DNA of 64,000 nt from Rhizomicrobium sp. (GTDB taxonomy: Bacteria > Pseudomonadota > Alphaproteobacteria > Micropepsales > Micropepsaceae): the NCBI GenBank assembly GCA_037200385.1, contig JBBCGL010000001.1:62001-126000 (forward strand), written 5' to 3'. Position numbers and translations under genes: made by a program. The notes under the pieces were generated by a model. The model made no database searches and had not been told where the DNA came from. It saw nothing but the letters and a program-made list of their open reading frames with translations. Below are positions 15,710 through 40,602 of the stretch, one piece after another. Numbering within the stretch: the first letter of the stretch is position 1; each line of letters starts with the position of its first letter.

Positions 15710-16261
15710 ATGTCTCCCTATCGCGGTCGCATGGCGGGTTATCGGATGGTTGACACAGGCTGGAACGCGCTGCGCGACGTGCTGGTCGAGAGCTATGCCG
15801 ACCTGGAGCGCCGTCTGACGCGCCGACTCCGTTCGTCGGAACTCGCGCGCGATGCCCTGCAGGATACTTATCTAAGGCTGGAGCGCGGCGGGCGGATCGG
15901 TCCCGTCGCGCATCCGCTGGGCTATGTCCTGCGGATTGCCATAAACCTTGCCAGGGACCGTCAGCGGGCGGAAAAGGGGCTGGCGAGCGCCGAACAAATC
16001 GAAGCCGCAATGGACATACCGGACGAGCATCCCGATCCGTCGCGGACCGCCGAAGCGAAGGCGGATCTTGCGATCGTGGAGCGGACGCTCGCGACCATGA
16101 CCGCCCGGCGCCGCGCGATCTTCCTCGCGGCCTGGAAGGAGCACCTGACGTCCCGGGAAATCGCGCGGCGTTACGATCTCAGCATCCGGCTTATCGACCT
16201 GGAGTTGAAGCGGGCGCGCGAACAATGTGCCGCGGCACTTCGCAAAGTTTCGGAAAAATGA
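15710..16261 (+). CDS. ECF sigma factor, FecI-like (system 2, VreI-like)
   Basis: Up to 183 residues. Region 2 is recognisable by ELARDALQDTYLRLE, and region 4 by ARRRAIFLAAWKEHLTSREIA with the helix-turn-helix that follows. ATGs at 15731 and 15746 are alternative starts; the ribosome binding site does not decide. It is divergent from the STN/TonB pair and followed by its FecR partner 90 bases downstream. Its likely targets are the TpsB, ExbBD-TonB and exoprotein genes. Confidence 0.85.
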   Translation: MSPYRGRMAGYRMVDTGWNALRDVLVESYADLERRLTRRLRSSELARDALQDTYLRLERGGRIGPVAHPLGYVLRIAINLARDRQRAEKGLASAEQIEAAMDIPDEHPDPSRTAEAKADLAIVERTLATMTARRRAIFLAAWKEHLTSREIARRYDLSIRLIDLELKRAREQCAAALRKVSEK

Positions 16262-16351
16262 TTCTCGGATGGCTTTTGCGATACGTCTACAAGACGGAGA
16301 GCCTCTGTTTCGGGGGGAAGCATCGCGTGCAAGCGGCGGTGTGACGGGAGA

Positions 16352-17326
16352 ATGGGGACTTTGAGCGGCAACCGTGGCTATGCACCCGACCTGACGCCGG
16401 TCGAGCGCGAAGCTCTGGCCTGGGTCGAACGGATGGTGGCGGGCGTGCCCAGCCACGGCGACCTGTCGGCCCTTGCGCGCTGGCGCGGCCAGAGCCGGGA
16501 TCACGAAGACGCCTTCGCCTCCGCCGTGAGGATGTACAAGCTCATCGATGCGCATGCGGTCCCGGAAGGGGATGCGTTCGTCCCGACTCTTCTGGAGCGA
16601 AAGTCCACCCGCCGCGGCTTGATTGCGGGCGGCGCCGCGGTCGGCATCGGCCTTTATGCGGTCGGAACGTCCTCGCTCGGGTTGTGGCCGTCCCTCGCCG
16701 AATTGGCGTCGGATTATCGGACGACCACCGGCGAGCGCCGCCGGATCGCGCTGGCACAAGGCATTTCGCTGGAATTGAACACCCGCAGCAGCGTTTCGCT
16801 GCGGCGTGGCAGCGCGCAGCCGGGAATCGAGCTCGTCGCTGGCGAGATCATCGTCTCGGCGGATCTGGCCTCAGCCCAACGATTTAGCGTGTTTGCGGCC
16901 GGAAGCCGCTTCACCACACGCCGCGGCACCTTCGACGTCCGCTCCGATGCCCGCGGAACCTGTGTCACTTGTGTCGAAGGCTCAGTCCGTATCGAGGGGC
17001 CGGCGGGACAACTGGCGATCGGCCCGCGCCAGCAGACATGGAAATCCGGCAACAGGTTCCTGCCGCCCGCTGCGGTCGATCCGACGGTGGTTACGGCATG
17101 GCAAAACGGCCAGCTTATCTTTCACGATGCCACGTTGTCGGTGGTGATCGCGGAACTCAACCGCTACCGGCCCGGCGAAATAGTCATCGTCAACTCTCGA
17201 CTTGCAGATAGCCGCTTCAGCGGCGAGTTCAGTATTGCCAGGCTTGATGAAGCCTTGACTCAAATCGCCAAGGTTGCCGACGCGGCCGCGACGCGCCTGC
17301 CGGGCGGGATCGTCATCCTGAGCTGA
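16352..17326 (+). CDS. FecR-family anti-sigma / sigma regulator (system 2, VreR-like)
   Basis: A 324-residue protein. It has an N-terminal DUF4880 region (ALAWVERMVAG ... LARWRGQSRDHEDAF), a hydrophobic helix around residues 88-112 (LIAGGAAVGIGLYAVGTSSLGL), then a periplasmic FecR domain and a C-terminal DUF4974-like region (FHDATLSVVIAELNRYRPGEIVI). A CVTC pair sits in the FecR domain. Unlike the other two pairs, no TonB receptor follows; the next gene is the TpsB transporter. The signal input must therefore come from the free STN protein or from the secretion machinery. Confidence 0.88.
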   Translation: MGTLSGNRGYAPDLTPVEREALAWVERMVAGVPSHGDLSALARWRGQSRDHEDAFASAVRMYKLIDAHAVPEGDAFVPTLLERKSTRRGLIAGGAAVGIGLYAVGTSSLGLWPSLAELASDYRTTTGERRRIALAQGISLELNTRSSVSLRRGSAQPGIELVAGEIIVSADLASAQRFSVFAAGSRFTTRRGTFDVRSDARGTCVTCVEGSVRIEGPAGQLAIGPRQQTWKSGNRFLPPAAVDPTVVTAWQNGQLIFHDATLSVVIAELNRYRPGEIVIVNSRLADSRFSGEFSIARLDEALTQIAKVADAAATRLPGGIVILS

Positions 17327-17454
17327 TGGCGTACCCCGCGGCCGCGACTCAAAAAGTTCACAAAAATCCCGTTCCAAACCTTGCAGCGCAATACGTCCCA
17401 TTCTTGAGGCCATGACGCAGATGCGTCGTGCGCCTGGAGTAGTGACGACTGCGG

Positions 17455-17586
17455 ATGAAAAGGACGAGCCGCGATAAGCGGACGATCCTGCCGGATGATC
17501 CGGATGCGCAGGCCGGCGCGGGTGACGCGGCGGTCGATGATGGGCTGTGGAGTTGCGTGCGCGGCTGCGCCGGGGCGAGGGGTTGA
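17455..17586 (+). CDS. Possible 43-codon leader ORF ending at the TpsB start
   Basis: An ATG frame at 17455 runs 43 codons and its stop codon ends exactly one base before the TpsB ATG at 17587. The peptide is hydrophilic with two cysteines near its end. No family is recognised and the ribosome binding site is distant. It may couple translation into TpsB or be chance. Confidence 0.2.
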   Translation: MKRTSRDKRTILPDDPDAQAGAGDAAVDDGLWSCVRGCAGARG

Positions 17587-19251
17587 ATGACAAGGAAATT
17601 CGGCGGCATGCCCGCGCCTCGCTTGCGGGCCGTGCTGGCAATCGGCGCGATCGCGATGCTGTCGGCGCGGAACGCGGAGGCACAGGATGGGCCGGCAGCC
17701 GCGGCTGCGCCGCCGACAGCTCCGGTTGCGCCGCCGGCCGCCGTTCCGACGCCGCCGCGCCTCGTCGACATCAACGAATATCAGGTCGAGGGCAACAGCC
17801 TTCTCGATCCCGTCGAGATCGAGCGCACGGTGTATCCCTTTCTCGGGCCCCAACGTCCGACGGGGGACGCGGAAAAGGCGCGCGCGGCGCTGGAAGCCCT
17901 CTATGCCGACAAAGGCTATCAGGCGGTCGTCGTGCAATTGCCGCCGCAGAATGTGCGCGACGGCGTGGTCCATATCCGGGTGATCGAGGCGAAGATCGGC
18001 GCCGTTACCGTCTCGGGCCAGCACTATTCGCGGGAAGCCGATATCCGCCGCGCGCTGCCGTCGGCCCGCAGCGGAAAGGTGCCGAACTTCAAGGATCTCA
18101 ACAAGGATCTGGTGGCGCTCAACGGCCGCAGCGCCGATGTCCAGGTGACGCCGCAGCTGAAACCGGGATCGGCCGCCGATACGATCGACGTCGATCTCAC
18201 CGTCGCGGATTCGCCCCCCATCCACAGCAGTGTCGAGCTCAACAACAACTACAGCCAGGACACCCATCCGCTGCGGCTGGAGGCGAATTTCTCCTTCGAC
18301 AATCTATGGGGCATCGGCCACGCCTTCTCGGCCTATTACGACTACGCGCCGCAGCACATGGACGACGCGGCGGTCTATGTCCTGAGCTATTCGATGCCGG
18401 TCCCCGAGAGCGACATCCGCCTGTCGCTCACGGGGCTCAAATCGGACAGCAATGTCACGACGGTTGGTTCCACGGGCGTCATCGGCCGGGGCTATTCGCT
18501 CACCTTGGCGGCCAATGCGCCGCTTCCGAGCCTTGGCGATTACACCCAATCGCTGCAAGCGGGGTTTGCATTCAAGCATTTCACCGACGTCGTCTCCATC
18601 ACCGGACAGTCGAACGATGCCCCCATCACCTACTATCCGCTGTCGGTCACATACAATGCGTCGTGGCGCGGCGAGCAGGATCTGGTCAACCTCAGCGCGG
18701 CCGTCAATTTCTCGTTCCGCGGACTGGGGAGCAGCAGCGACGCCTATGACGCCAAGCGCTATCGCGCGCTGCCGAATTTCGTCTATTTGCGGGCTTCGGC
18801 CAATCTGCAGCACGACTTCGCGTCGGGCTGGCAATTGTATCTCGAGAGCGACGGTCAGTTCTCCAACGAGCCGTTGATCTCGAACGAACAATTCTCCGCC
18901 GGCGGCAACGGTTCGGTGCGCGGCTATCTCCAGGCCGAGGCGCTGGGCGACAACGGCATCCACAGCGCCATCGAGTTCCGCACGCCCGAGCTCGCGCCTC
19001 TCGTCGACAAGGACGCCGACCTGTTGAACGAACTGCGCCTGTTCGCCTTCACGGACGCGGCCCGCTCCTGGCTGCTCTCGCCGCTGCCGCAACAGCAGGA
19101 CGATTTCAGTCTTCTGGGCGTGGGGCTCGGGCTCCGAGCCCGCATCAAGTTCATCAACGTGGAAGGTGATTGGGGACATGCGCTCAAGGACAGCTCCGCG
19201 ACCCGCAGCGGCGAGGACCGTTTCTACTTCCGCATCTACAGCCAGATTTGA
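17587..19251 (+). CDS. TpsB outer-membrane transporter (ShlB/FhaC/HecB family) of a two-partner secretion system
   Basis: A 554-residue Omp85-superfamily protein. It has a signal peptide (cleavage near ARNAEA-QD), a Pro/Ala-rich linker, two POTRA domains (about residues 60-215; INEYQVEGNSLLDPVEIE opens the first) and a 16-strand-type barrel. The conserved L6 loop motif VRGY is present (GNGSVRGYLQAEALG, about residue 440), as is the terminal FYFRIYSQI strand. It would recognise and export the giant filamentous exoprotein encoded at 24537. GAGGGG precedes the ATG. Unusually for TpsB, it heads a run of ExbB, ExbD and TonB genes, suggesting input from the proton motive force. Confidence 0.93.
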   Translation: MTRKFGGMPAPRLRAVLAIGAIAMLSARNAEAQDGPAAAAAPPTAPVAPPAAVPTPPRLVDINEYQVEGNSLLDPVEIERTVYPFLGPQRPTGDAEKARAALEALYADKGYQAVVVQLPPQNVRDGVVHIRVIEAKIGAVTVSGQHYSREADIRRALPSARSGKVPNFKDLNKDLVALNGRSADVQVTPQLKPGSAADTIDVDLTVADSPPIHSSVELNNNYSQDTHPLRLEANFSFDNLWGIGHAFSAYYDYAPQHMDDAAVYVLSYSMPVPESDIRLSLTGLKSDSNVTTVGSTGVIGRGYSLTLAANAPLPSLGDYTQSLQAGFAFKHFTDVVSITGQSNDAPITYYPLSVTYNASWRGEQDLVNLSAAVNFSFRGLGSSSDAYDAKRYRALPNFVYLRASANLQHDFASGWQLYLESDGQFSNEPLISNEQFSAGGNGSVRGYLQAEALGDNGIHSAIEFRTPELAPLVDKDADLLNELRLFAFTDAARSWLLSPLPQQQDDFSLLGVGLGLRARIKFINVEGDWGHALKDSSATRSGEDRFYFRIYSQI

Positions 19252-19272
19252 GCAATGAACACGAGGTCGTCC

Positions 19273-21018
19273 ATGAATTCGCGCCGCCGGATCGCAACCA
19301 TCCTCATCGTCATCGCTGCCGCCGTTCTCGGCAGCAGCCCGGCATCGGCTTGGTTCGACAATGCCTGGAGCTTCCGCAAGGCGATCACCGTCGACAGCAA
19401 GGCCGCCGCGGTCGACGACACGCTCAAGCACTATCCGGTCCTGATACGTCTCGATTCCAGCCGGTTCAATTTCGACGACGCGCAGAAAGCGGGGCAGGAT
19501 CTGCGCTTCGTCGACAGCGATGACCGCACGGTCCTCAACTACCAGATCGAGAGCTTCGATTCGGCGCTCGGACTGGCGATGATCTGGGTCGACATGCCCG
19601 AATTGCCGGGCGGCAGCGAACACCAGATCTGGATGTATTACGGCAACAAGACCGCGCAGAGCGGCGCCGACCCGGTCAAGGTGTTCGATGCGGCCTATCG
19701 CGGCGTATATCATTTCGTCAGTGGCAATCCGGGTCGCGACAGCTCATCCGCGCATGCCGACATCGCGGGTGTCGCCACGGCCGCGGCCGGCGCCATCGGT
19801 GCCGGCGCCGGGTTTACCGGCCAACCGGTCAGCCTTCCCGCGTCGGTCAATCCCGCGACGGGCTTCACGCTGTCTTTCTGGGCGCATGAAAAGGCGCCCG
19901 CGGCCAACGCGGTGCTTTATGCCTTGCATGGCGCCGGCGCGCTCGTGGTGGGTCTGAAGCAGGGCGTGCCCTATCTCGAAGTCGGCGGCCAGCACGTCGA
20001 CGCCACGGTGCCGCCGCTGGCCGACTGGACCGACTTCGCCGTGGTCGGCGATGCCGGCAAGACGACGCTTTATGTCGATGGCAAGCCGGCCGCGACCGTG
20101 AATGCTCCGGTGCCGGCCACGGTCGGCACGGCGACGCTCGGCGCCGACGGCACAACCCCCTCGACGGCGTTCACCGGCGAGATCGACGAGTTGCGGACGT
20201 CCGCCACCGCGCGGCCGGCGTCGCTGGTCGCCGCCGACTACGCCGCACAGCGCGCGGGTTCGCCGCTTGTGGAATATGGCGCGGACGAAAAGGCGTCCGG
20301 CGTCGGCTTCGGCTATTTCGGAATCATCTTCCGCAATATTACGCCGGATGCCTGGGTCGTGATCGCCGTCCTCGCCGTGATGGCGGTGCTGTCATGGCTG
20401 GTGATGTGGACGAAATGGAACTATGTCGCGCGGGCCGCGCGCGCCAATCGCGTGTTCCTGGCGCGCTACCGCGAGCAGGGCAGCAACCTGACGGCGCTCG
20501 ACGGCGCGCTCGCCGCGCCGGGCGGCAAGCGCCGGCTGATCGAGGCGGCGCCGATCTATCGGGTCTACCGGATCGGCATGGCCGAGCTGCATGCCCGCGG
20601 CGACCTGCGCGGCCGCGCCCTCACCGGCGAGACGGTGGCCGCGATCCGCGCATCGCTGGACGGTCAGCAGGTCGAGGAAAACCAGGCGCTGGACCGCCAC
20701 ATGGTCCTTCTCACGATCGCCATCGCAGGCGGGCCGTTCATCGGTCTGCTCGGCACCGTCCTCGGCGTGATGATCACCTTCGCCGCGATCGCGGCCGCCG
20801 GCGACGTGAACGTCAATGCCATCGCGCCTGGCATCGCTGCCGCCCTGCTCGCCACCGTCACCGGCCTCTTCGTCGCGATCCCGGCGCTGTTCGGCTACAA
20901 CTACCTTTCCACGCTCAACGCCGACGTCTCCGCGAAGATGCAGGTCTTCGCCGACCAGTTTGTCACGCGGCTGGCCGAAGTGCAGCGCGACGCGTCGCGC
21001 GCGCAAGCGGCGGAGTAA
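19273..21018 (+). CDS. ExbB/TolQ proton-channel protein with periplasmic DUF2341 and LamG-like domains
   Basis: A 581-residue fusion. It has a signal peptide (ATILIVIAAAVLGSSPASA) and a DUF2341 domain (about 25-125; WSFRKAITVD, LRFVDSDD, IWMYYGN). A concanavalin/LamG-like jellyroll follows at about 165-330 (TGFTLSFWAHE, DWTDFAVVGDAGKTTLYVDGKP in part, GEIDELRTS), then a membrane helix around 355 and the MotA/TolQ/ExbB core (GGPFIGLLGTVLGVMITF, ATVTGLFVAIPALFGYNYL). The start at 19273 has GAGG six bases upstream and is preferred over ATG 19255. Ordinary ExbB has no such exposed binding domains. It is followed after three bases by ExbD. The jellyroll may sense carbohydrate or the exoprotein; that is inference. 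Confidence 0.88.
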   Translation: MNSRRRIATILIVIAAAVLGSSPASAWFDNAWSFRKAITVDSKAAAVDDTLKHYPVLIRLDSSRFNFDDAQKAGQDLRFVDSDDRTVLNYQIESFDSALGLAMIWVDMPELPGGSEHQIWMYYGNKTAQSGADPVKVFDAAYRGVYHFVSGNPGRDSSSAHADIAGVATAAAGAIGAGAGFTGQPVSLPASVNPATGFTLSFWAHEKAPAANAVLYALHGAGALVVGLKQGVPYLEVGGQHVDATVPPLADWTDFAVVGDAGKTTLYVDGKPAATVNAPVPATVGTATLGADGTTPSTAFTGEIDELRTSATARPASLVAADYAAQRAGSPLVEYGADEKASGVGFGYFGIIFRNITPDAWVVIAVLAVMAVLSWLVMWTKWNYVARAARANRVFLARYREQGSNLTALDGALAAPGGKRRLIEAAPIYRVYRIGMAELHARGDLRGRALTGETVAAIRASLDGQQVEENQALDRHMVLLTIAIAGGPFIGLLGTVLGVMITFAAIAAAGDVNVNAIAPGIAAALLATVTGLFVAIPALFGYNYLSTLNADVSAKMQVFADQFVTRLAEVQRDASRAQAAE

Positions 21019-21021
21019 GCC

Positions 21022-21432
21022 ATGCAGATCCAGGCCGCGCGCGGCAAGCGCTACGACGACATCAACATCACGCCCATGCTGGACCTCGCTTTCGTCCTGC
21101 TCGTGATCTTCATCATCATGACCACCGCCCAGGTCCAGGGCATCAAGGTGAATCTGCCCAAGGCGTCGTCCGCGGTCCATCTCGAGGCCGATAAGACCAA
21201 GGCCATCACGATCGCCAATGACGGGCAGATCTACTACGAGGCGTTCCCGGTTTCGCTCGACGAGCTCGATCTCAAGCTGACCGAGCAGAAGGCGTTGACG
21301 CCGGAGTTCCCGATCGTGGTGAAGGGCGACGGCACCGTCCAATACCAGCGCGTCGTCGCGGTGCTGGACCTGCTGCGCCGGCTCGACCTGACCAAGGTCG
21401 GTCTCGTCACCGGCAAGCCGCAGAAGAGCTGA
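21022..21432 (+). CDS. exbD: ExbD biopolymer transport protein
   Basis: A 136-residue ExbD with a short cytoplasmic tail and a single transmembrane helix. That helix holds the essential proton-carrying aspartate, D21, in NITPMLDLAFVLLVIFI. A periplasmic domain follows (KAITIANDGQIYYEA, VVKGDGTVQYQRVVAVLDLLRR). Together with the preceding ExbB fusion and the following TonB it would form an inner-membrane motor. The spacing of three and four bases to its neighbours indicates one transcript. Confidence 0.95.
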   Translation: MQIQAARGKRYDDINITPMLDLAFVLLVIFIIMTTAQVQGIKVNLPKASSAVHLEADKTKAITIANDGQIYYEAFPVSLDELDLKLTEQKALTPEFPIVVKGDGTVQYQRVVAVLDLLRRLDLTKVGLVTGKPQKS

Positions 21433-21436
21433 GGCG

Positions 21437-22117
21437 ATGACGGCTGCGTTCACTCCGGATGAGGACAACGACGGCGGCGGCCGGTTCCTGCGCTATGCGG
21501 GTCCGGTCGCGGTTCTCGTCGTGCTGGTCCTTGCCATAGCGTGGTTCGCCAGCCAGCAGGCCGGTGTGATCCGGCAGGCCAGCACCATCTCGACGATTTT
21601 GCCCGTCGAGCAGCCTCCTCCTCCGCCGCCTCCGCCCAAGCCGATCGAGCCGCCCAAGCCCGTACCCGAGCAGATCGTGCAGCCGACCAACACACCGCCG
21701 CCGCCCGCGCCGGCGGCGCCACAGAACAATGCGATCACCGAGAACGCGCCCGCGCAGGCCGGTCCGGCCGACGCCTTCAATATCGGTGCCGGCTCCGGCG
21801 GCGGCATGAGGGGCGCCGGTCTCGCGGGATTCGCCGAAACGCCGGCGAGTTACGGCCAGTATGCGCGGGGCCGCATCATGGCGGCCGTCAAGGGCAGCGA
21901 CGTCCTGCATGACAAGGACTTCATCGCGGTGGTTCGCCTGTGGTTCAACGCCCGAGGCACCATCGCCAAGATCGAGATCACGCGGCCGACCGGCGTCGAC
22001 ACTTACGATGCCGAGATCGCGCACGTGCTGGACGGTCTTTCCGGCTTCACGCCGCCGTCGCCCGAAGTGGTCGCGCAGATGCCGATCCAGTTCACCATCG
22101 ACGAGAGGCATCTATGA
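21437..22117 (+). CDS. tonB: TonB energy transducer of the secretion island
   Basis: A 226-residue TonB with an N-terminal helix (YAGPVAVLVVLVLAIAWFA), a proline-rich spacer (eight consecutive prolines near residue 60, then KPIEPPKP) and a C-terminal TonB domain (YGQYARGRIMAAVKGS, VVRLWFNARGTIAKIEITRPTG in part). Its place between ExbD and the porin gene suggests that it contacts an outer-membrane partner made by the same operon: TpsB or the porin. No TonB receptor is encoded in the operon itself. Confidence 0.92.
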   Translation: MTAAFTPDEDNDGGGRFLRYAGPVAVLVVLVLAIAWFASQQAGVIRQASTISTILPVEQPPPPPPPPKPIEPPKPVPEQIVQPTNTPPPPAPAAPQNNAITENAPAQAGPADAFNIGAGSGGGMRGAGLAGFAETPASYGQYARGRIMAAVKGSDVLHDKDFIAVVRLWFNARGTIAKIEITRPTGVDTYDAEIAHVLDGLSGFTPPSPEVVAQMPIQFTIDERHL

Positions 22118-22183
22118 GCCTCTCGCACATCGACAAGGACGTGCGCCGGGTGCGCGCCGTTTCAATCACCGAAGGGGAATGCC

Positions 22184-23962: not shown

Positions 23963-23974
23963 GGGCACAGGCCT

Positions 23975-24478
23975 GTGTCGCGTTCGCCAGCAATCGATGA
24001 ACGGGTGATGGACATGTCCGCGCAGATGCCGCGTGCGGGTTGGTCGGGATTGCTCCTCATGGCCCTTCCTCCGCGCAGTATGACGGAACTGTACGGCACG
24101 CCACAGCGCCGGCCCGCCGCCGGCGCGCCGCACCGGCCGCATCGTGGGACGGCGACGCGTCTTGCCGTTCTCCTTTTCGCTTGCGTTGGTCTCCTGGGAC
24201 ATCCGGCCCTGGCGCAGCAATCCTGCGTCGAGGTCGAGGTCGAGGGGCAGCGACGGCCACCGCTCGATTGCCTCAATCGCCAGCTGCAACAGGCATCGGC
24301 GGCTGGCGGCCCATCCGCCGCGATCGCCGCCGTCGTCGGCAATGCCGAACCCAACCGGGTCGGCATATTCAGCCATGCCGGCACGGCCATCCGCATGGGA
24401 GCGGCCTTCGGCAGGTCTGCAACGCCCCAACGCCCGTCATCCGTTTACGCACAGCCAGTGGGAGCGCCGCGGCCGTGA
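23975..24478 (+). CDS. Small secreted protein of the secretion island, unknown function
   Basis: A frame of up to 167 residues (GTG start; ATGs at 24008 and 24056 are alternatives). A hydrophobic export signal lies in its middle (RLAVLLFACVGLLGHPALA-QQ). The mature part begins QQSCVEVEVEGQRRPPLDCLNRQLQ, with two cysteines likely to form a disulfide, and then becomes low-complexity. It sits between the porin and exoprotein genes. I recognise no named domain, but position and signal peptide argue that it is real. The very long pre-signal region suggests that the true start is internal. Confidence 0.55.
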   Translation: MSRSPAIDERVMDMSAQMPRAGWSGLLLMALPPRSMTELYGTPQRRPAAGAPHRPHRGTATRLAVLLFACVGLLGHPALAQQSCVEVEVEGQRRPPLDCLNRQLQQASAAGGPSAAIAAVVGNAEPNRVGIFSHAGTAIRMGAAFGRSATPQRPSSVYAQPVGAPRP

Positions 24479-24536
24479 TCGCCACGCATCCCAAGGGCCA
24501 TCGCCCGACCCATACCGCCATCTCCGCGAGGACGTC

Positions 24537-33500: not shown

Positions 33501-36500
33501 AACCGGCAGTTCATCAACGCGGCTCTCGCCAATCCGGATCTCATGAACCGGATCCAGGGGCTTTCGGCCTATCGCGACGCGTTCCATCTGCGCCCCGGCG
33601 TGGAGATCGACAGCGCCACGCCGGACGGTAATTTGACCACGGTCGGCGACCTGGACTTCTCGGGCTTCCGCTATGCCAGCGTCAATCCGAACAGCCAGCA
33701 GACCGGCATCTACGGATCCGGCGAGCCGGGTGCGGTGATCTTCCGTGCCGGCGGCAGTCTCAATATACAGGGCAATATCAGCGACGGATTCCAGCCCGGT
33801 CCGGAGGTGCCGATCATCGAGGAAGAATTCCTCACGACGGTCACCACCGCCATTGCGACCGAAGCCGCGCTGGAGGACGGCGTGGCATTGGCGAACTCCT
33901 TCACGTTCATCAACCTGCCCACGCCGAACGACGCCGTCGGGACCCGCGTGAATTCCGGCGGTGGCTGGTTCTATTTCCCCGGCTATTGCGGCGCGTTCTG
34001 CAGCGACGCCACGGTCGTCTCTGGTCAGGTCAAGGACAACGTCACCGGCCATACCTTCAATCCCGGCGACCAGATCGGCTACTTCACCGCGAATGGCTAT
34101 GGCGGTACCACCTTTGCCGCCGGAACGGTGATCGCGATTGCCGGACAAAGCGAGGGCACGGTCTTGTTCACGGGGTCGTCGTCGCGGGTGCTCTCCACCG
34201 TGTCGCAGCACGCCGCGCCCGGCACGCCGGTGGGCTCCACGACCACGACGGTCGATACGCCAGACGGCGTCGAAACGATCACGTCGTCGACCGGCACGCA
34301 GAGCATCTCCGTGGTCACGGCGCTTCCCGCGGCGGCGCAGATGCTGGCGCCGGGATCGCTCTCATGGTCGATGCGGTTCGCCGCCGGCGCCGACCTGCAA
34401 GCCGCAGACACGCGCGCGCTGCAGACCAAGGCGGCCCTGGCGGCCGCGCCCGCTTCGCAAGCCGGCAACATCACGCTCAACGATCCCTCGGTCGCGCTGG
34501 CCCTCAACTGGAGCTTCTACGGCGAGCAGGATACGGCCGGCTTCAGCGTGCTGCGCACGGGCACCGGCGACCTCGAATTGCTGGCAGGCGGCGATTTCAG
34601 CGAGCAGTCGCCCTATGGCGTCTATACGGCGGGCACGCAGTCGCCCGACGTGAACCAAATGATCGTCAATCCGCTGGGTCCGGACGGCCTGAACCTGCCC
34701 GGCCAGCCGGAGATGGTGAACGCTTTCGACATTCCACGCAGCCGCTCTTCGGACGGCTCCGGCACGATCCTCGGCGACTGGTATGACAACAATGCCCAGT
34801 GGCAGTTGTCCTATCCGAGTATCGATGCGGACCAGGTGCAGCTCTTCGAAGCCGCGGTCGAAGCGCAGCGCGCCTACTATCCGCAGAGCGGCGGCGATCT
34901 GCTGCTGAAAGCACAGGGCGACATCGTATCGCCGGCGCCGGTCACCTTAGGGGGGGTCTTCACCACGCCGGCGAGCAACAATGTCGGCAATTGGCTTTGG
35001 ACGCAGGGTGGCGCGGACACCGGGCAGCCCGCGGCGTGGTGGATCAATTTCGGCACCTATGTCAACAACCCCGGCAGCATAACGCCCGAGGGTGCCGGAC
35101 CGCAGCTGGTCGGATTCACCGGCATCGGCACGCTGGGTGGCGGCAATGCCACCATCCTGTCGGGCAACAACATCCTTTATCTCAATGCGGCCGTCGCGAG
35201 CACCGGGCGCGTCACCGCTGTCACGCATTCCGGCAACGTCGTCACCGGCGGTGCGATCATGGAGACCGGCGGCGGTCTGCTCACGGTGAAGGCGGACGGC
35301 GACGTCTTCGGCACGGTCACCGACACCCGCGGCACCATCGCTGTGAACGCCCAGACCGTCGGCGACCTCGCGAATCCCGGCTCGAACGCCCAAGGTGCTT
35401 TGCCGAGCGAACTTTACGCCTACCAGACGCCGCAGTTCGACGGGGCCGGCCTTCCCATGGGCTTCACGGTCGTTCAAGGCGATGCGGCTGCGAATATCGA
35501 CACGCGCGGCGATCTCGTGGTGACCGGCGAAGCCAATCCCGGCTATCTCAATTCGGTCAGCACGCCGGAGGCGATCTTCTATTCCGGACCCCAAGCCGGC
35601 ACCGTCGCTGCGGCGCCCGACAGCTACTTCTCCCTTTGGACGCCGCAGACGGCAATCGCCATGGTGTCCGCTGGCGGCAATGTCAGTCCGGCCGTGATCG
35701 GCCAACTCCAGGATGCCAATGTCCTGCTGAGCGGCGGTTTGCTCTCCGCCTATATGGCGCCGGGCAGCTACTCCGTGGTCGCGGCGAATGGCGACATCCT
35801 GCTGCGCGGGACCAGCAATCTCGGCAACTACAACCAAGAGGTCGTCGAGCTTGCGCCGTCGCCCAATGGCGAACTCCAGCTCCTTGCCGCAGGCTCGATT
35901 CAGGGACAGGGCCTGCTGAATGCCGATGGCACGGCCCAGACCTCCTATGGACAATTCCCCGATTTCAGCTTTGCCATGTCCGGCGCCGGCGCCGGCCCCA
36001 ACGATCTGCCCAATCCGTTCCGGCCGGCCGATCCGTCGGGCTTGGCGAATTCCTATTATCTCAATCCTTTCGCCTTCGAATCCGACGTTCCCACGAGCGA
36101 CGTTCATGCGGGCGACGCTGTTCCCAACCGCATCTATGCGGCAACGGGTGACATCACCAGTCTCGGCCTCAATATCATGGCCAAGCCGACGGATATCGTG
36201 GCGGGCGGCGACATCGATTATCTGACCGGCCAACTGGGTAACGACAAGCCGAATGACGTTTCGATCATCGCGGCCGGCGGCAATATCATCTTTCCCGATG
36301 TCGCGATCGGCGGGCCTGGCACGCTGGCGGTGAGCGCGCAGGGCAATATCTTCATGGGAACGCGGCCGCAGGCGCCGCAATTTGTTGCCGACCCGGTGTT
36401 CGGCTTCACGCAAGGCGCCAGCAGCAGCAGCTTCACCAGCACCGGCCTCTGGTATGGACAATCCGGCTCCGTGTCTGGCGGCGCGAATGTCGCTGTCGTG

Positions 36501-37607
36501 GCGGGACAGGGAGCGAACGGGCCCGACTATGCGGCCTTCAAGGCGCTTTATCTCGACCCCGCCAAACAGGCCGATCCCGCCTATCCGCTCGACTTCCCGC
36601 AGAACCAGGGGAAAGTGGTCCAGACCTACCAGGACCAGCTCTACGCATGGCTCAAGAGCAGCTATGGCTATGCCGGAACGGAAGCGGACGAGATGGCGTT
36701 CTTCAATGCCTTGTCGCAGCCGCAGCAGGACGTGTTCCTGCGCCAGGCGTTCTTCAACGAACTCAACCAGGCGGACGTCGAGTACAACGACCCGTCGAAT
36801 CCGCTGTTCCAGAGCTATGTCCGCGGCCGCACGGCCATCGCCACGCTGTTCCCCGCGTCCGGCAGTTACGACGGCGCCATAACGATGTATGGCGGCTCGG
36901 GAATCCGCAGCGAATTCGGCGGCGACGTCTCGATCCTGACGCCGGGCGGGTTCACGACCATCGGCGTGGAGGGCCCGACACCGGCACCGACCGCCGGCGT
37001 GATCACGCAAGGTTCCGGCAATATCGGCATCTACAGCCTCGGCAGCGTCGAGCTCGGCCAGAGCCGCGTCTTCACCACGTTCGGTGGCGACATCACGATC
37101 TGGTCGGCGACCGGCGACATCAATGCGGGCCGCGGCGCCAAGACCGCCGTGGTCTACAGCCCGCCGCTCCTGAGCTATGACGATCTTGGCAACATCACCC
37201 TGTCGCCGACCGTTCCGAGCCAGGGCGCGGGCATCGGCACGCTGGCGCCCATTCCGCAAGTGCCGCCGGGCGACGTCTTTCTGGTCGCACCGCTCGGCAT
37301 CATTGATGCGGGAGAGGCCGGCGTACGCGTCTCCGGCAATGCCTATCTCGCCGCGCTGCAGATCGTGAATGCCGCCAATATCCAAGTGCAGGGCAAGGCT
37401 TTCGGCTTGCCGCCGAAGCCTGTCACAAATCTGGCGCTGACCACGGCTAGCAATGCGGCCACGGAGGCGGCGGCCGTGGTGAAGAAGCTGGCGGCGCAGC
37501 ATCAATCGGTGATCTCGGTCGAGGTGACCGGCTTCGGCGGCAGCGCTGCCGAGCCGGATGTCTGCATCCCGACGGCGACCAGCCCATGCCCGCCATCCAA
37601 CCCGTAA
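24537..37607 (+). CDS. Giant filamentous-haemagglutinin-type TpsA exoprotein (4356 residues)
   Basis: A beta-helical surface protein. A signal peptide (AFLLASSSVLALVMGDNAYA) precedes an Ala/Gln-rich spacer. The TPS secretion domain follows at about 100-330 (LLNWQTFNVG near 157, VLNRNGVIFGG near 215). Thousands of residues of Gly/Asp/Ala-rich beta-helix repeats follow. The last roughly 300 residues match the DUF3739 exoprotein end (GIIDAGEAGVRVSGNAYLAALQ). ATG 24537 is taken as the start because the signal peptide begins there, although the frame is open upstream. Two cysteines, C4343 and C4351, lie in the last 14 residues, resembling the HMW1/HMW2 C-terminal anchor. A C3151-x3-C3155 pair is the only other one I noticed. 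It would be exported by the TpsB at 17587 and kept on the surface. Ligand unknown. Confidence 0.95.
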   Translation: MNPIRLPNARAFLLASSSVLALVMGDNAYAGPLSERVGGAAVQVNPTTPAPTISGVVTTPQQVAAQQARTTANLNEAAARLQATLTAQASARAAAQAASSTVPNGLGSGGLQVDPRAADPNAPGYSPLYWSGADQPTQTAANGQTTVTITQHQSQALLNWQTFNVGAKTTVNFVQKDTSGKDQSTWVAINKVNDPNARPSQILGQINAPGSVYVLNRNGVIFGGTAQVNVHSLVAAAANYGTPDIQDDPAAFAAQFSTYGLYSPVTSVSDPSSGVYYDYTPAFTGSGGAVVVQAGAQITTAAPASVTAGGGFVLLLGANVSNAGTIATPDGQVTLAAGDNFYIRPGFSTGSAAGSIADNNTTSTTRGNEVAYTLDANSGSGTVSNTGLLEATTGDITMAGQMVLQDGVAFATTSVAARGTIHLLTSQEDATSSVTLTADSLTTIQPDLSDTTTALDSQRATLITNSTKQDGLRDYSNPYLFQLIADAGTDSGRSYRFGEFDDLSLLADREDQSRVEIVTGGVADFKGGSLTMAQGGQIAVSGVTRTLVESAANLDVSGSLDVLLPVSGNIITVNIQGNELRDAPVNRDAGDLKNGDVYVDTRDLILVPAGTDGYATDRYYTAGGLLEVSGWLANTGHTIGEWTAEGGTITLSSGLPVQSDPSRPLADFRDGTPVPVSAFAGDVVVQPDAIFNLSGGAIDYQGGYVNTTWLLGSDGNFYNLDTAPADIQYAALGNTFQVDHGRWVTTDNYSQGLLTPSQLYEPGYIDGRDAGTLIIDTPTAIFEGQIAAGVVTGSGQVKQRAAGVADGYGVPQNVAALPGRLAIDTTLDSVLNGGFNPAGTDVVVGTGQPGLAGSLDAASLVPGDRLDTVWLDAGALDADGLGGLSINTVGDFAITAPLTLAPGGSLIVNASTADIAADVTARAGSVSINGGVLRAVTLKPQGGVDVTLEAGATIDTRGLFTNAFLDPSDLAGEAFVNGGGVSLTAINGITLAAGSVIDASGGGFVSASGAATAGKGGDISLLADQYDFLSSTTGVVSNFDAPLTIDGTLRSVGSTGGALTLQFPQDLIVSNTTVVNGSTLAAGTAAPAGLTLDQSLTIKAGQPLPLALTQTSVISVVAPGMAMPVSLVPPGGSAPGPTSIVLAAPWTVPPGAGILYTIDSANYNRSWTTGQIIPAGAILWGGYGSIPAGYVLPADVFPHGLAIPPTPVNTTYAAGTVLGSDVTYAPGTDIPLGSLLPADVTVRAPLQLKPDFFAQGFSNYTLTNLGNITITPGTQVNVTEPTYQVTAATIMTPTGSDPLAAFAVGLQPLYLDNPVKSTITQRPGASITLQTASIAARQGLYEDYVPGTPLPVSITSVASIGGTGITLKADWTIPNDPFYVGLNYMHAQDPQGNDYYFRAGDTIPAGYSIPGGDWTANAYFGLEGGTVLPASVFPSFPLPVQYEYNRSTILIGAGGGITVDPKQAITLSSPGQITVSGDLTAHAGKVTVTNTMPLSFINGDNSYTTPDVDGLSIWIAGDIDVSGQAVTAVNHAGQTYGTVTDGGSIVLGNTGTASTSAFVVIRPGAVLDADGASADLVLFPSQDATSFGTGDLLPQPVASNGGAITLTSFSGIYNDGDATARAGGAGAAGGLLSVTMSTPVYSIKTLTGPDNVPLDDQSSRVLTVSQETPAGTLPDDLAAGTADPSLVVGHGRVSVAQIATGGFDSVYLEGNGGLLFDGDVDLNVGRSLSLAGGFSDTTTGAAVNVSAPYVALLPGLFVSAGDYHYAPHGAAIGSASDAGSFTVTAASRDPNTSGGLIELGESERFGGFATVDLVSQGDIRFLAPSASYNYQSTLSASGDLALTAARIYGLPTLVSKPGGSGGAPIIYTAKDSVTATGDLAIHNYGASADTQIPDSYFTTMTLTGSTIEQGGAIFAPLGVIAFSASGAALVSSVDLQPGSLTSTSAAGILLPFGGTTDDLNYTINGVPLADVVLPVGVSIGANFYSGAEQDLDVEKGAVIDVSGGGEFQGKSFISGRGGSVDTLLNPFLTFNPTAGTYSTNSANQVYAIMPGAQPGYAPASGGTIDGSPDPAPGVGQQITIPEGVPGLPAGTYTLLPSNYALLPGAYRVELQGPAKGAASGATALNNGSYLVDGYTGVANTAIKADMPTQIVISSGKAVLDYSQYDQTTYTATLLNQIAQTGTDQVKLPFSVITPRFLADAGSLSFLYGNVGNPQFNFTFDGTALFAPAKGGQDGGTTISISGMVPIEIIADDGTPTQGELSLRTGDLAALNTPNLVINADVGGNNGAGDITVRAGAYLTGDGIALFTGYSGSGVLNEHPNLTIESGAGVNARGNLILSDARGSIFVDAGGTAIAQDTLYFDTSDLNIDSGALIGGKGLSLSAPEINIGTADSLAAAESAGALPEGLSVTQAELNALLAGNASANIPALQSLTLTATGSLNLVGTVDFDTTKLATLEIDTPAIYGLGETGDTAAINAGTLIWSMPFVSNVAATAPDIVAGGPGTGSGRLAVTADEVIFGSATPGTAYYGPATFKTLSTSTFYPSGTVDPGQGQFEESTPTARVASGFANVTFTARDSIVSNSHGSLSVSQADGSAADLDLVTPLLTGTAGSVADYAASGTLTLEAPAGTAPSAATPNALGAEIDLSGHAIDVSSTIVANSGKVVMTAQGDIALGAGARIDLSGQTIPILDTVEYSWGGDLSLLSADGNISQAVGSVIDVSAQNNTAGSVTVQAIGADAGNVSLDGTLRGASIAGAGMAAHAGGFATIDAQTLGTAALDAGFADVNGRLDAGGFTGGRAFDLRRGDLVIAGTVKASDVEIALDGGSLTVNGLVDASGPAPGTIRLTAADDLTLGSNSLLDAHGTVLQKDSYGNPIDAENRAHVELTSDNGTLTLMPHAAIDVSSPEAAPQGDVEINVGRDSETGGDARISAAGPVTIKGAQNIAVNAFWTYVPTDANGSIIQDNLDPGGAPVAVTGDDAGYVGLDQVDARNRQFINAALANPDLMNRIQGLSAYRDAFHLRPGVEIDSATPDGNLTTVGDLDFSGFRYASVNPNSQQTGIYGSGEPGAVIFRAGGSLNIQGNISDGFQPGPEVPIIEEEFLTTVTTAIATEAALEDGVALANSFTFINLPTPNDAVGTRVNSGGGWFYFPGYCGAFCSDATVVSGQVKDNVTGHTFNPGDQIGYFTANGYGGTTFAAGTVIAIAGQSEGTVLFTGSSSRVLSTVSQHAAPGTPVGSTTTTVDTPDGVETITSSTGTQSISVVTALPAAAQMLAPGSLSWSMRFAAGADLQAADTRALQTKAALAAAPASQAGNITLNDPSVALALNWSFYGEQDTAGFSVLRTGTGDLELLAGGDFSEQSPYGVYTAGTQSPDVNQMIVNPLGPDGLNLPGQPEMVNAFDIPRSRSSDGSGTILGDWYDNNAQWQLSYPSIDADQVQLFEAAVEAQRAYYPQSGGDLLLKAQGDIVSPAPVTLGGVFTTPASNNVGNWLWTQGGADTGQPAAWWINFGTYVNNPGSITPEGAGPQLVGFTGIGTLGGGNATILSGNNILYLNAAVASTGRVTAVTHSGNVVTGGAIMETGGGLLTVKADGDVFGTVTDTRGTIAVNAQTVGDLANPGSNAQGALPSELYAYQTPQFDGAGLPMGFTVVQGDAAANIDTRGDLVVTGEANPGYLNSVSTPEAIFYSGPQAGTVAAAPDSYFSLWTPQTAIAMVSAGGNVSPAVIGQLQDANVLLSGGLLSAYMAPGSYSVVAANGDILLRGTSNLGNYNQEVVELAPSPNGELQLLAAGSIQGQGLLNADGTAQTSYGQFPDFSFAMSGAGAGPNDLPNPFRPADPSGLANSYYLNPFAFESDVPTSDVHAGDAVPNRIYAATGDITSLGLNIMAKPTDIVAGGDIDYLTGQLGNDKPNDVSIIAAGGNIIFPDVAIGGPGTLAVSAQGNIFMGTRPQAPQFVADPVFGFTQGASSSSFTSTGLWYGQSGSVSGGANVAVVAGQGANGPDYAAFKALYLDPAKQADPAYPLDFPQNQGKVVQTYQDQLYAWLKSSYGYAGTEADEMAFFNALSQPQQDVFLRQAFFNELNQADVEYNDPSNPLFQSYVRGRTAIATLFPASGSYDGAITMYGGSGIRSEFGGDVSILTPGGFTTIGVEGPTPAPTAGVITQGSGNIGIYSLGSVELGQSRVFTTFGGDITIWSATGDINAGRGAKTAVVYSPPLLSYDDLGNITLSPTVPSQGAGIGTLAPIPQVPPGDVFLVAPLGIIDAGEAGVRVSGNAYLAALQIVNAANIQVQGKAFGLPPKPVTNLALTTASNAATEAAAVVKKLAAQHQSVISVEVTGFGGSAAEPDVCIPTATSPCPPSNP

Positions 37608-37617
37608 GAGAGGACAC

Positions 37618-39065: not shown

Positions 39066-39067
39066 TC

Positions 39068-39529
39068 ATGTTGAAACGCTTTGCCGCATTCGGCGCCGCG
39101 CTCGCCAGCCTCCTTTCGGCTGCGCAGGCGCAGCAAGGTTCACCGGTATCCACCAGACAGGCGCCGGCCGCGTGGGTGCAATACGCCGGTCTGCTGCAGC
39201 ATCAGTTCGAAGTGCGACTCGCAGACGGCGGTGCCGCGGCCGGTCGGCTGCGCAGCTATCTGGCCGGCACGCACGCTACGGGTGCTACGATCGCCGCCAG
39301 CATATGGCTCCGCCCGGACGGTACGGTCTCCAAAGTCGCCTTCGCGCCGTTTCTCGACTCCCAGGCCAACGCGGATTTGAACGAGATACTACAAGGCACG
39401 AAGCTCCCGTCGTCACCGCCGTCGGGCATTCTCCTGCCGATCCATCTGAACCTGCATGTCGCGCCCGCGCCGCCGTCCGCGATAGGCGGCGACCTGCCGC
39501 CGGCGGGCGCTGGCCAGGGGCCGCGATGA
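39068..39529 (+). CDS. Small periplasmic TonB-C-like protein
   Basis: A 153-residue protein with a cleavable signal (FAAFGAALASLLSAAQA-QQ) and a domain resembling TonB-C / DUF-type energy-transducer ends (YLAGTHATGATIAASIWLRPDGTVSKVAFAPF in part, by the LRPDGTVSKV motif). It lacks the transmembrane helix and proline linker of real TonB. It sits two bases after SapC and overlaps the next gene. It could act as a free periplasmic TonB-like adaptor, echoing the TonB-C end of the STN protein at 14711. Confidence 0.65.
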   Translation: MLKRFAAFGAALASLLSAAQAQQGSPVSTRQAPAAWVQYAGLLQHQFEVRLADGGAAAGRLRSYLAGTHATGATIAASIWLRPDGTVSKVAFAPFLDSQANADLNEILQGTKLPSSPPSGILLPIHLNLHVAPAPPSAIGGDLPPAGAGQGPR

Positions 39530-40602
39530 ACATTCCGGACGATGCCGCCAGCGCCACCCTCCATGACGGCACCGGATCCTTTCTTGCACTGCTCGATCGC
39601 TTCGGCTGTTCGCTGCTCCTCAGCACGGACGACTATCGTCTTGTCGCAATCGGGGTCAGCGAGCGGAAACCGACGCTCCGCGCTCTGGTCCTTCCATTTC
39701 TGCGCGGCGTCGGCGTGCAAGGTTCCTACATCGCTGCAGGCACCGCCAGTTCAGTGGTCGTCTTCAAGGATGTCCCTGGGCTCGCTCCGCTCGTTCCCGA
39801 TGCGCCCCAGCGCTTCGACGCGGTCTATATGCCGCGGGCCGTGCATTTCACCGGTCGTTGCGATTTCCATGACATGGCGTTCGTCGGAGGCGCGATCGTC
39901 GCCGTAAACACGCATTATTCGTGCATCTGCGCCGTCGACGGGCGCCACAGTTTCACCCCGCTGTGGAAGCCGCCCTTCATCACGCAGTTGCTGCCCGAGG
40001 ATCGCTGCCATCTGAACGGCATGGCGATCGAGAACGGCCAGATCCGCTATGCGACGCTGCTCGGAGAGTCCGATCGGCGGGAGGGGTGGCGCGATATCTA
40101 TCTCGATGATGCAGGATTGGTCGTGGAAGTCCCGAGCGGCCGCATCGTCGCAAGCGGCCTGTCGCTGCCGCATTCGCCGCGTGTCATCGGCGGCAGACTG
40201 TTCTGCCTGGACAGCGGCCGCGGCGAACTGCTCGGAATCGACGCAGGAAACGGACAGCGCACCGTCCTGGCACGCTTACCAGGATTCGCGCACGGACTTC
40301 TCGAATATCGCGGTGTCCTTTTCATCGCCGTGTCCAAGCTGCGGTCGCGCCGGCCCGAACGCAGGCTTCCGCTCGAAGACGGCGGTGGAGAACCCATCTG
40401 CGGCATCCTCGCGCTGGATGCCGCCAGCTTCCGGCTGCTTGGGACACTCGAAATCCGGACCGGCATCCACGAGATCTACGATCTGCAGCTTTTGCCTGGT
40501 GTCCGCAGGGCGGACATCCGGAACTCCGATCAATGGAGAGAGCAGCAGGCGATCGAATTGCCCGACAGTGCGTTTTGGGCGCACGAACCGATCGTGCGAT
40601 GA
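39526..40602 (+). CDS. TIGR03032 / DUF4915 family protein
   Basis: A 358-residue soluble protein with beta-propeller-like repeats and the family marks: VYMPRAVHFTGRCDFHDMAF (by RAVHFTGxxDxHD), FVAVNTxxSC as VAVNTHYSC, PEDRCHLNGMA, SGLSLPHSPR and FIAVSKLR. Family members (TIGR03032) occur near large exoproteins and glycosyltransferases, but no reaction is established. The start overlaps the preceding stop (ATGA). It has no signal peptide, so it acts in the cytoplasm, perhaps modifying the exoprotein before export (inference). It is the last gene of the island. Confidence 0.85.
   Translation: MNIPDDAASATLHDGTGSFLALLDRFGCSLLLSTDDYRLVAIGVSERKPTLRALVLPFLRGVGVQGSYIAAGTASSVVVFKDVPGLAPLVPDAPQRFDAVYMPRAVHFTGRCDFHDMAFVGGAIVAVNTHYSCICAVDGRHSFTPLWKPPFITQLLPEDRCHLNGMAIENGQIRYATLLGESDRREGWRDIYLDDAGLVVEVPSGRIVASGLSLPHSPRVIGGRLFCLDSGRGELLGIDAGNGQRTVLARLPGFAHGLLEYRGVLFIAVSKLRSRRPERRLPLEDGGGEPICGILALDAASFRLLGTLEIRTGIHEIYDLQLLPGVRRADIRNSDQWREQQAIELPDSAFWAHEPIVR

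What the first reader, a model, noticed from the sequence alone, without database searches (positions are those of the whole stretch)
15710..40602. Two-partner secretion island with its own ExbB-ExbD-TonB motor and surface-signalling sigma system
TpsB at 17587 is followed without gaps by ExbB, ExbD and TonB, a porin, a small secreted protein and a 4356-residue exoprotein, then OmpH-like, SapC, TonB-C-like and TIGR03032 genes. Standard two-partner secretion is thought to need no energy coupling at the outer membrane. A private proton-driven transducer in the operon suggests that TonB may gate or drive TpsB, release the exoprotein or feed the porin. The closest described arrangement I know is the P. 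aeruginosa PUMA3 locus (PdtA/PdtB with ExbB2/ExbD2/TonB4). This version adds six or so genes not explained there.
Basis: partly seen in the sequence, partly recalled or inferred. Interest (0 to 1): 0.85.

Follow-up and report, generated by a model that had tools for sequence, protein, structure and literature searches.

The report
TonB-linked two-partner secretion and sensing
This bacterium carries a gene set that pairs a giant surface protein and its exporter with a private proton-driven motor, a special porin and a signalling relay; the same parts travel together across distant bacteria, and in some relatives the giant protein itself carries the signalling domain, which suggests a powered surface sensor rather than plain secretion.

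Summary
TpsB, ExbB, ExbD and TonB lie 3-4 bases apart, followed by a porin and a 4356-residue TpsA with a C-terminal DUF3739 domain. Two genes were missed: an STN (VreA-like) protein and a second TonB at 13966-15511 (-). In 299 Pseudomonadota genomes DUF3739 and full-length Porin_5 occur in the same nine (DUF2341 in eight of them; in the ninth the ExbB is cut by a contig end), TpsB in 127. In 115 Verrucomicrobiota, DUF3739 and full-length Porin_5 again coincide (three genomes). Motor-linked TpsBs form one branch; 0 of 50 control TpsB loci show the motor in short flanks. Cassette porins carry a conserved [YFH]-[VIL] segment before the barrel (71 of 73 by pattern; 0 of 27 unlinked Porin_5-like proteins): a candidate TonB contact. 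In Sphingobium relatives STN is fused to the TpsA C-terminus and no VreA gene stands beside sigma-FecR. I read this as a powered display-and-sense version of the P. aeruginosa PUMA3/Pdt locus. The gene module is secure; TonB's partner and TpsA's role as receptor are inferred; whether TonB drives export is untested.

The parts
13966..14781 (-). Second TonB (proline-rich, TonB_C); likely start ATG at 14742 or 14676
   Evidence: TonB_C 1.4e-11; same place in Caulobacter L097 and Sphingobium L102; start codons
14711..15511 (-). VreA-like periplasmic protein with STN domain; likely start ATG at 15469 or 15466
   Evidence: STN 6.2e-7, over cut-off.
15710..16261 (+). ECF sigma factor
   Evidence: Sigma70_r2 and r4_2 over cut-off
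16352..17326 (+). FecR-type anti-sigma regulator
   Evidence: FecR 1.3e-12, FecR_C, DUF4880
17587..19251 (+). TpsB outer-membrane exporter
   Evidence: ShlB, POTRA_2; inside the motor-linked TpsB branch
19255..21018 (+). ExbB with N-terminal DUF2341 + LamG (lectin-like) domains before the TolQ/ExbB part; periplasmic placing of these domains is inferred
   Evidence: AF2 model pLDDT 88.6; Foldseek ExbB/TolQ and LamG-type folds
21022..21432 (+). ExbD (conserved Asp21)
   Evidence: ExbD 9e-30; alignment consensus
21437..22117 (+). TonB (proline-rich, TonB_2)
22184..23962 (+). Porin_5, 16 predicted strands; N-terminal stretch with VRVPYVPESVR (about residues 96-106)
   Evidence: Porin_5 3e-170; AF2; motif; PA0696 position in PUMA3
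24008..24478 (+). Small secreted-looking protein (start uncertain)
   Evidence: no Pfam hit; profile relatives in 14 of 80 loci and four of the first set
24537..37607 (+). TpsA exoprotein, 4356 aa: TPS domain, long body, DUF3739 at 4183-4292, C-terminal Cys pair C4343/C4351
37618..38277 (+). OmpH/Skp-like protein
   Evidence: OmpH 1e-17; behind TpsA in L068, L263, L269, L309, L316
38274..39065 (+). SapC protein
   Evidence: SapC 2.5e-57; behind TpsA in L262, L263, L269, L309, L314, L316
39068..39529 (+). Small TonB-C-like protein without TM anchor
   Evidence: relatives L060 1028-1486 (4e-19), L263 3590-4207 (5e-17)
39526..40602 (+). TIGR03032 / DUF4915 protein
   Evidence: relatives upstream of TpsB in Paraburkholderia L074 and L127

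Best explanation
This is a PUMA3/Pdt-type locus that displays a giant TpsA on the surface and senses through it. Shown: the genes, their tight operon, the co-occurrence of DUF3739-TpsA, DUF2341-LamG-ExbB and Porin_5, one branch of motor-linked TpsBs, and recurrent fusion of an STN domain to the TpsA C-terminus in relatives. Inferred: (1) TpsB exports TpsA N-terminus first, but TpsA is not released; its DUF3739 end stays at the TpsB pore with the C-terminal tail in the periplasm, because an STN domain placed there can meet FecR only in the periplasm. (2) The motor brings proton-motive force to this outer-membrane complex, most likely by TonB binding the Y-V-P segment of the porin; the DUF2341/LamG part of ExbB acts as a periplasmic docking or ligand domain. 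(3) The state of TpsA reaches FecR through STN (here on the separate VreA-like protein, in relatives on TpsA itself), which frees the sigma factor to express the operon.
For: DUF3739 9/299; DUF2341 8/299, all within those 9; the ninth (G284) has a contig that begins inside such an ExbB, then ExbD, TonB and Porin_5, the DUF2341 part itself not being on it; full-length Porin_5 in the same 9/299 against TpsB in 127/299. Verrucomicrobiota: full-length Porin_5 3/115, DUF3739 the same 3/115, centre genome included. Of 80 loci found by the fused ExbB: ExbD 79, TonB 75, Porin_5 73, some TPS gene in the fetched DNA 74; 22 of the 37 without TpsB in range have it directly before TpsA on the same contig. 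DUF3739 in 74 of 78 genomes behind these loci. Porin segment 71/73 by pattern against 0/27 unlinked Porin_5-like proteins. STN on TpsA: 6 genes in 5 of 298 genomes, Pfam STN over cut-off in 5 of 6; the five of these loci examined with flanks have sigma-FecR and no VreA gene beside it, whereas three loci with VreA (window, L097/L262, L102/L263) have TpsA without STN. TpsA genes with their own sigma-FecR pair directly upstream: two of three in G200 (the third's upstream was not fetched) and both in G284. G294: a sister TpsB without motor in range has a TpsA open frame of 1242 aa and its genome no DUF3739.
Against: No experiment shows that the motor is needed for TpsA or for signalling. The porin segment as a TonB contact rests on conservation only; no complex was modelled. 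In L134, L310 and L312 TonB is followed by TpsB, not by the porin. STN was on 1 of 61 TpsA tails in the broad set, otherwise seen in one family only. Sigma and FecR were found in only 13 of 80 loci (flanks of 10 kb miss some). The other member of the G294 sister pair, L188 of G333, comes from a MAG that does carry a fused ExbB (L152) but no detected DUF3739, so that case is not clean. PUMA3 activity depends on PhoB and phosphate (PMC4971064 passages), which gives no sign of TpsA as sensor. A Cys pair that could hold TpsA in the pore is present in only 16 of 61 tails.
Confidence: 0.45

Rival explanations
1. TonB-ExbB-ExbD drives or gates TpsB so that the very large DUF3739 exoprotein is exported or released.
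For: Motor-linked TpsBs are one branch; the motor goes with large DUF3739 TpsAs (open frames mostly about 3,300-5,100 residues; shorter ones were not checked for contig ends); a TpsB without motor just outside the branch has a short TpsA; in L134, L310 and L312 TpsB lies between TonB and the porin.
Against: No conserved segment in the N-terminal extension of TpsB; in 26 of 80 loci the gene right before ExbB is TpsA, not TpsB; a 2017 review states that no energy source powers type V translocation and that translocation was reconstituted without external energy (PMC5422565 passages). None of this was tested for DUF3739 proteins.
Confidence: 0.2
2. HxuCBA-like scavenging: TpsA captures a ligand outside and Porin_5, energised by TonB, imports it; the sigma/FecR part regulates by substrate.
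For: Porin_5 is the next tested gene after TonB in 70 of 74 loci, and only linked Porin_5 has the extra N-terminal segment; the H. influenzae HxuA/HxuB/HxuC operon is a TPS with a TonB-dependent transporter (PMC5422565 passage).
Against: Porin_5 has no Plug hit and a predicted 16-strand porin-like barrel, unlike TonB-dependent transporters; the plus-strand neighbour clusters seen in 10 or more of the 80 loci are a coiled-coil-like protein, PpiC, YbjN and LysR types, none an uptake or catabolic gene.
Confidence: 0.22
3. The motor, porin and TPS are only co-regulated parts of one response and do not touch each other.
For: All are in one P. aeruginosa VreI/PhoB regulon (passages).
Against: Co-regulation alone would hardly give this degree of co-occurrence over two phyla, nor fusion of STN to TpsA; in G268 the ExbB-ExbD-TonB part lies on another contig than TpsB-Porin_5-TpsA, yet is kept.
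Confidence: 0.1

Closest known systems
Pseudomonas aeruginosa PUMA3/Pdt locus (vreA-vreI-vreR, pdtA, phdA-pdtB-exbB2-exbD2-tonB4-PA0696-PA0701)
   Same: Same core order TpsB-ExbB-ExbD-TonB-porin, same STN/TonB-like VreA with ECF sigma and regulator (passages). Pseudomonas loci of my set (L077-L083, L085 and others) keep this layout with Phd/transposase-like, coiled-coil, YbjN, PpiC and LysR genes, family names checked on one representative each. P. aeruginosa itself was not searched here.
   Different: Here TpsA sits in the operon behind the porin; the tail set is OmpH-SapC-TonB-C-TIGR03032; the PA0697-like coiled-coil gene has no match in the window; a second TonB sits beside the VreA-like gene (not mentioned in the passages read). 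Phd and Hxc type II genes were not looked for in the window.
Two-partner secretion of FhaB/FhaC type (type Vb)
   Same: TpsB with POTRA_2 and ShlB barrel, TpsA with N-terminal TPS domain.
   Different: Private Ton motor and porin; C-terminal DUF3739. None of 50 control TpsB loci, nor two of the three other TpsB loci of this genome that were fetched, shows motor genes in its short flanks.
TonB-dependent transducers with cell-surface signalling (FecA/FpvA-FecR-FecI)
   Same: ECF sigma + FecR + STN domain + TonB.
   Different: STN is not on a plugged receptor but on a small protein, or in relatives at the C-terminus of a TPS exoprotein.
HxuCBA haem-haemopexin system
   Same: TPS operon plus a TonB-linked outer-membrane partner.
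   Different: Partner is Porin_5 without plug, not a TonB-dependent transporter; the motor is encoded in the operon.

Membership tests
Two-partner secretion (type Vb) | TpsB with ShlB-type POTRA and barrel, and TpsA with TPS domain in one locus | tested here: met
Two-partner secretion (type Vb) | Export of TpsA by TpsB without an energy source | not testable with these tools
   needs an experiment
PUMA3/Pdt-type locus | TpsB-ExbB-ExbD-TonB-porin in this order | tested here: met
   PUMA3 order from PMC2729926 and PMC7035377 passages
PUMA3/Pdt-type locus | VreA (STN) with ECF sigma and FecR-type regulator | tested here: met
   STN 6.2e-7, sigma and FecR; divergent from sigma here, vreA and vreI overlap in P. 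aeruginosa
PUMA3/Pdt-type locus | Control by PhoB / phosphate starvation | not tested
   no pho-box search made
PUMA3/Pdt-type locus | Neighbouring Hxc type II secretion genes | not tested
   not searched in the window; type II genes near TpsA in L257
TonB-dependent receptor (for the porin) | Plug domain inside a 22-strand barrel | tested here: not met
   no Plug hit; 16 strands predicted
TonB-dependent receptor (for the porin) | Periplasmic TonB box | tested here: inconclusive
   conserved Y-V-P-type segment; binding not tested
Contact-dependent inhibition (CdiA) | C-terminal toxin domain | tested here: not met
   only TPS and DUF3739 in Pfam at E up to 0.01; an immunity gene was not looked for
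HxuCBA-like system | TonB-dependent transporter in the TPS operon | tested here: not met
   Porin_5 instead; the TonB-dependent receptor at 42732 lies beyond an opposite-strand gene

The most novel reading that the evidence does not exclude
A DUF3739 TpsA is itself a cell-surface signal receptor: a giant surface fibre whose C-terminus stays in the periplasm and talks to a FecR anti-sigma factor through STN, in a complex energised by its own Ton motor through a porin that carries a TonB-binding segment. It would supply the outer-membrane receptor left unknown for PUMA3 and be a proton-driven class of two-partner secretion.
Probability: 0.4. Interest if true: 0.9.

Novelty: new variant of a known kind. 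Interest (0 to 1): 0.75.

Why it matters
Two-partner secretion is described as unpowered. Here one defined class of it, marked by DUF3739, is almost never found without a private proton-driven motor and a matching porin, so the question 'is any type V secretion energised, and for what?' becomes directly testable. The STN-TpsA fusions point to TpsA as the missing receptor of the PUMA3 signalling pathway of pseudomonads, for which the 2009 paper left the outer-membrane receptor unknown. The porin segment gives a precise target for a TonB binding test.

Tried and rejected
TonB box on TpsB: residues 33-58 show no conserved motif among 43 TpsBs. OmpH-like protein as a form of the coiled-coil-like protein that follows Porin_5 elsewhere: no profile match, hhalign probability 15%, and that family has no match in the window. 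A first, too strict porin pattern found 42 of 73; the wider pattern, chosen after seeing the misses, found 71 of 73, the two others having near variants, so the pattern is not independent of the data; the 27 controls were scored with the same pattern. The third letter of the segment is Y in 68, F in 2, H in 1; by automatic measure 65 of 71 lie 40-60 residues before the first strand, the other six being measured to a later match of the strand pattern. A universal C-terminal Cys hook on TpsA: only 16 of 61. G478, a DUF2341 hit in Verrucomicrobiota, looked like a motor without TPS but matches only the N-terminal half, not the ExbB half. DUF2341 alone is not specific in Verrucomicrobiota (13 of 115). 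Loci without any TPS gene in range: 6 of 80 (L106, L107, L141, L147, L148, L152); five of these genomes have DUF3739 elsewhere, G333 (L152) does not. L141 also lacks Porin_5 in range, and in L106 it is on the other strand. The four of 78 genomes without DUF3739 (G333, G356, G372, G376) are MAGs whose ExbB contigs are 3.5-8.7 kb long. Control flanks (about 1.5 kb, then about 3 kb) are too short to see a motor behind a TpsA; what covers this is that the control genomes have no DUF2341 at all, except G255 and G130, which carry the cassette elsewhere. Rows dropped: TpsBs under 450 residues in both trees, and 11 rows (two long branches, nine near-duplicates) in the second. My print of the second tree was cut at its end. 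The Sphingobium SYK-6 Ton paper (PMC8599685 passages) did not bear on this.
Full report
Check of the observation. The window is bases 62001-126000 of a 5.0-Mb single-contig genome. TpsB-ExbB-ExbD-TonB are 3, 3 and 4 bases apart; the genes behind TpsA overlap or nearly touch. The ExbB is a fusion: DUF2341, a Laminin_G_3 (lectin-like) domain, then the MotA/TolQ/ExbB domain. Two genes were overlooked: a search of the own genome for STN hit 15119-15232 on the minus strand, inside a 266-residue open frame (STN 6.2e-7), and beside it lies a second TonB with TonB_C 1.4e-11. The signalling part is therefore TonB2 and VreA-like on one strand and sigma-FecR on the other; the same four genes stand together in Caulobacter L097 and Sphingobium L102.

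Does the set travel together? In one sample of 299 Pseudomonadota genomes (own genome included) DUF3739 occurs in 9, DUF2341 in 8, all among those 9, and full-length Porin_5 (E below 1e-100) in the same 9; three further genomes have partial or marginal Porin_5 matches. The ninth genome (G284) has a 3,770-base contig that begins inside such an ExbB and holds ExbD, TonB and Porin_5. TpsB as such occurs in 127 of 299. Without the own genome the DUF3739/Porin_5 match has p about 7e-16 if genomes were independent, which they are not fully (the nine lie in 7 families). A second sample, 115 genomes of the phylum of G368 (a Verrucomicrobiota MAG known to have the locus), gave full-length Porin_5 in 3, DUF3739 in the same 3, and DUF2341 in 13 including those 3; without the centre genome p is about 1.6e-4. 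28 more genomes there have only partial Porin_5-like matches.

Neighbourhoods. A search with the fused ExbB gave 80 loci from alpha-, beta- and gammaproteobacteria and Verrucomicrobiota (338 candidates were confirmed, the best 80 kept). With iterated profiles of the window's parts: ExbD in 79, TonB 75, Porin_5 73, TpsB 43, TpsA C-terminus 38, TpsA N-terminus 28, small secreted protein 14, sigma 13, FecR 13, TIGR03032 2, SapC 1, OmpH 0; any TPS gene in 74 of 80. Flanks of 10 kb hide genes beyond a TpsA of 10-13 kb, so counts for outer genes are lower bounds. Porin_5 is the next tested gene after the motor TonB in 70 of 74 loci where ExbD and TonB were both found; before ExbB stands TpsB in 40, TpsA in 26, a more distant TpsA in 5, and none in range in 9. 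Three orders exist: TpsB-ExbB-ExbD-TonB-Porin_5; TpsA-ExbB-ExbD(-ExbD)-TonB-Porin_5; and, in L134, L310 and L312, ExbB-ExbD-TonB-TpsB-Porin_5. TpsB was found in 47 of 49 genomes asked and DUF3739 in 74 of 78. A secreted-looking, coiled-coil-like protein follows Porin_5 in 55 of 80 loci by clustering and is in 66 of 80 by profile; its place corresponds to PA0697. It has no match in the window, where the small secreted protein stands in this place.

Controls. Of 30 TpsB loci that the tool returned for the best ShlB matches (TpsB recognised again in 29; about 1.5 kb flanks) none shows a motor or Porin_5 gene; of 20 further TpsB loci (about 3 kb flanks) none; two of the three other TpsB loci of the own genome were fetched and show none. 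Such flanks cannot show a motor behind a TpsA, but 48 of the 50 control genomes have no DUF2341 at all, and the other two, G255 and G130, carry the cassette elsewhere. In trees (quick IQ-TREE, SH-aLRT only) motor-linked TpsBs form one branch with support 99: 79 rows (51 cassette, 21 linked, 7 unassigned from cassette genomes), and 70 rows with all 51 controls outside. The first rows outside are a pair: L211 (G294), a TpsB without motor whose TpsA open frame is 1242 residues long and whose genome has no DUF3739, and L188 of G333, a MAG that does have a fused ExbB on a short contig but no detected DUF3739. G294 suggests that the motor goes with the DUF3739 exoprotein rather than with TpsB as such; G333 keeps this from being clean.

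What does TonB act on? The N-terminal extension of TpsB has no conserved motif. Cassette porins have a conserved stretch, mostly [VI]-x-Y-[VI]-P, about 45 residues before the first barrel strand: 71 of 73 by pattern, the other two by near variants, against 0 of 27 Porin_5-like proteins of Verrucomicrobiota genomes without the locus, and 2 of 1420 shuffles (letters and distances). Tyr100 is invariant in the 52 porins of alignment A2; outside it F or H occur in three. In the AF2 model (pLDDT 79.9, 52 sequences) the barrel has 16 strands and the stretch is coil between a low-confidence linker and a helix. The best Foldseek match is the barrel of OmpM1 of Veillonella, an outer-membrane attachment porin. 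I infer that this stretch is the TonB contact; it could as well contact VreA, the TonB-C-like protein or TpsB.

Signalling. In Sphingobium quisquiliarum P25 the TpsA C-terminus is DUF3739 followed by an STN domain. It recurs: six TpsA genes in 5 of 298 genomes of that family (centre included; at most 8 candidates per genome were scored) match over both domains; Pfam STN is over cut-off in five of the six tails, the sixth has 21.4 bits against 28.4. Five of these genes lie in loci examined with flanks: all have sigma-FecR at the head and none has a VreA gene beside it (for S. quisquiliarum only 2.5 kb before sigma are available; VreA-profile matches there are the motor TonB, the TpsA tail itself and, 2.7 kb beyond sigma in L312, a 1063-residue protein with its own sigma and FecR). 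The sixth (G494) lies in a short open frame without the cassette in the 39 kb fetched. Loci with a separate VreA (window, Caulobacter L097/L262, Sphingobium L102/L263) have TpsA without STN. So in what was examined STN is either on VreA or on TpsA. As the signalling domain of transducers is the part that meets the sigma regulator (PMC2729926 passage), the TpsA C-terminus should stay in the periplasm. TpsA genes with their own sigma-FecR pair directly upstream are seen in G200 (two of three) and G284 (both), and some genomes have many DUF3739 matches (nine in G358, six in G345). In the broad set STN was on 1 of 61 tails.

Comparison with print. PMC2729926 (passages) reports the association of PUMA3 with TPS, ExbBD and PA0696 in several genera and an unknown outer-membrane receptor for VreA; PMC7035377 (passages) calls exbB2-exbD2-tonB4 uncharacterized and PA0696 a putative porin; PMC12505986 (passages) mentions DUF2341 as an appendage of such A subunits; PMC5422565 (passages) states that no energy source powers type V translocation. 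Searches for DUF3739 (0 papers), DUF2341 with ExbB, TPS with ExbB/ExbD/TonB, PdtA/PdtB/TonB, haemagglutinin/ExbB/FecR/Sphingobium, TPS with STN and signalling and TonB4/ExbB2/PUMA3 listed no title or abstract start that describes the triad, the porin segment or the STN-TpsA fusion; several listings were capped (20 of 971, 12 of 22), and subscription papers, among them Faure 2014, were not readable.

Verdict. The gene module is secure and wider than the finding claimed. The function is an inference: most likely a powered display-and-sense system, with powered export and nutrient capture as live rivals.

Noticed in passing
window 4880-13564 and 45480-49236: Further FecR genes and STN-type TonB-dependent receptors flank the island; one stretch also holds a tryptophan-halogenase-like gene (9848-11524, -) and an asparagine-synthase-like gene (11648-13564).
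   Followed up: no
L257 5139-10298 (Paraburkholderia podalyriae); by look also L258 and L264: Type II secretion genes (secretin and T2SSF by Pfam in L257) lie next to the DUF3739 TpsA, as the Hxc genes do in PUMA3.
   Followed up: partly
L206 (G220): A TpsB without motor in range is followed by a SapC gene, so SapC may belong with TPS more widely.
   Followed up: no
G358 and G345 (Rhodoblastus sphagnicola L088, Pandoraea L089): Nine and six DUF3739 matches in one genome, many exoproteins possibly served by one motor.
   Followed up: no
L107, L111, L114, L124, L128, L131, L132, L136, L137, L143, L146, L150, L153: Two ExbD genes in tandem within the cassette.
   Followed up: no
L078, L081, L085, L256-L258 and others, TpsA C-terminal tails: A recurrent extreme C-terminal tail of the kind Y-[DN]-x-x-S-x-V-Q-V-L-G-x-G...L in Pseudomonas and Burkholderia-group TpsAs; other TpsAs end in a Cys pair instead.
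   Followed up: partly
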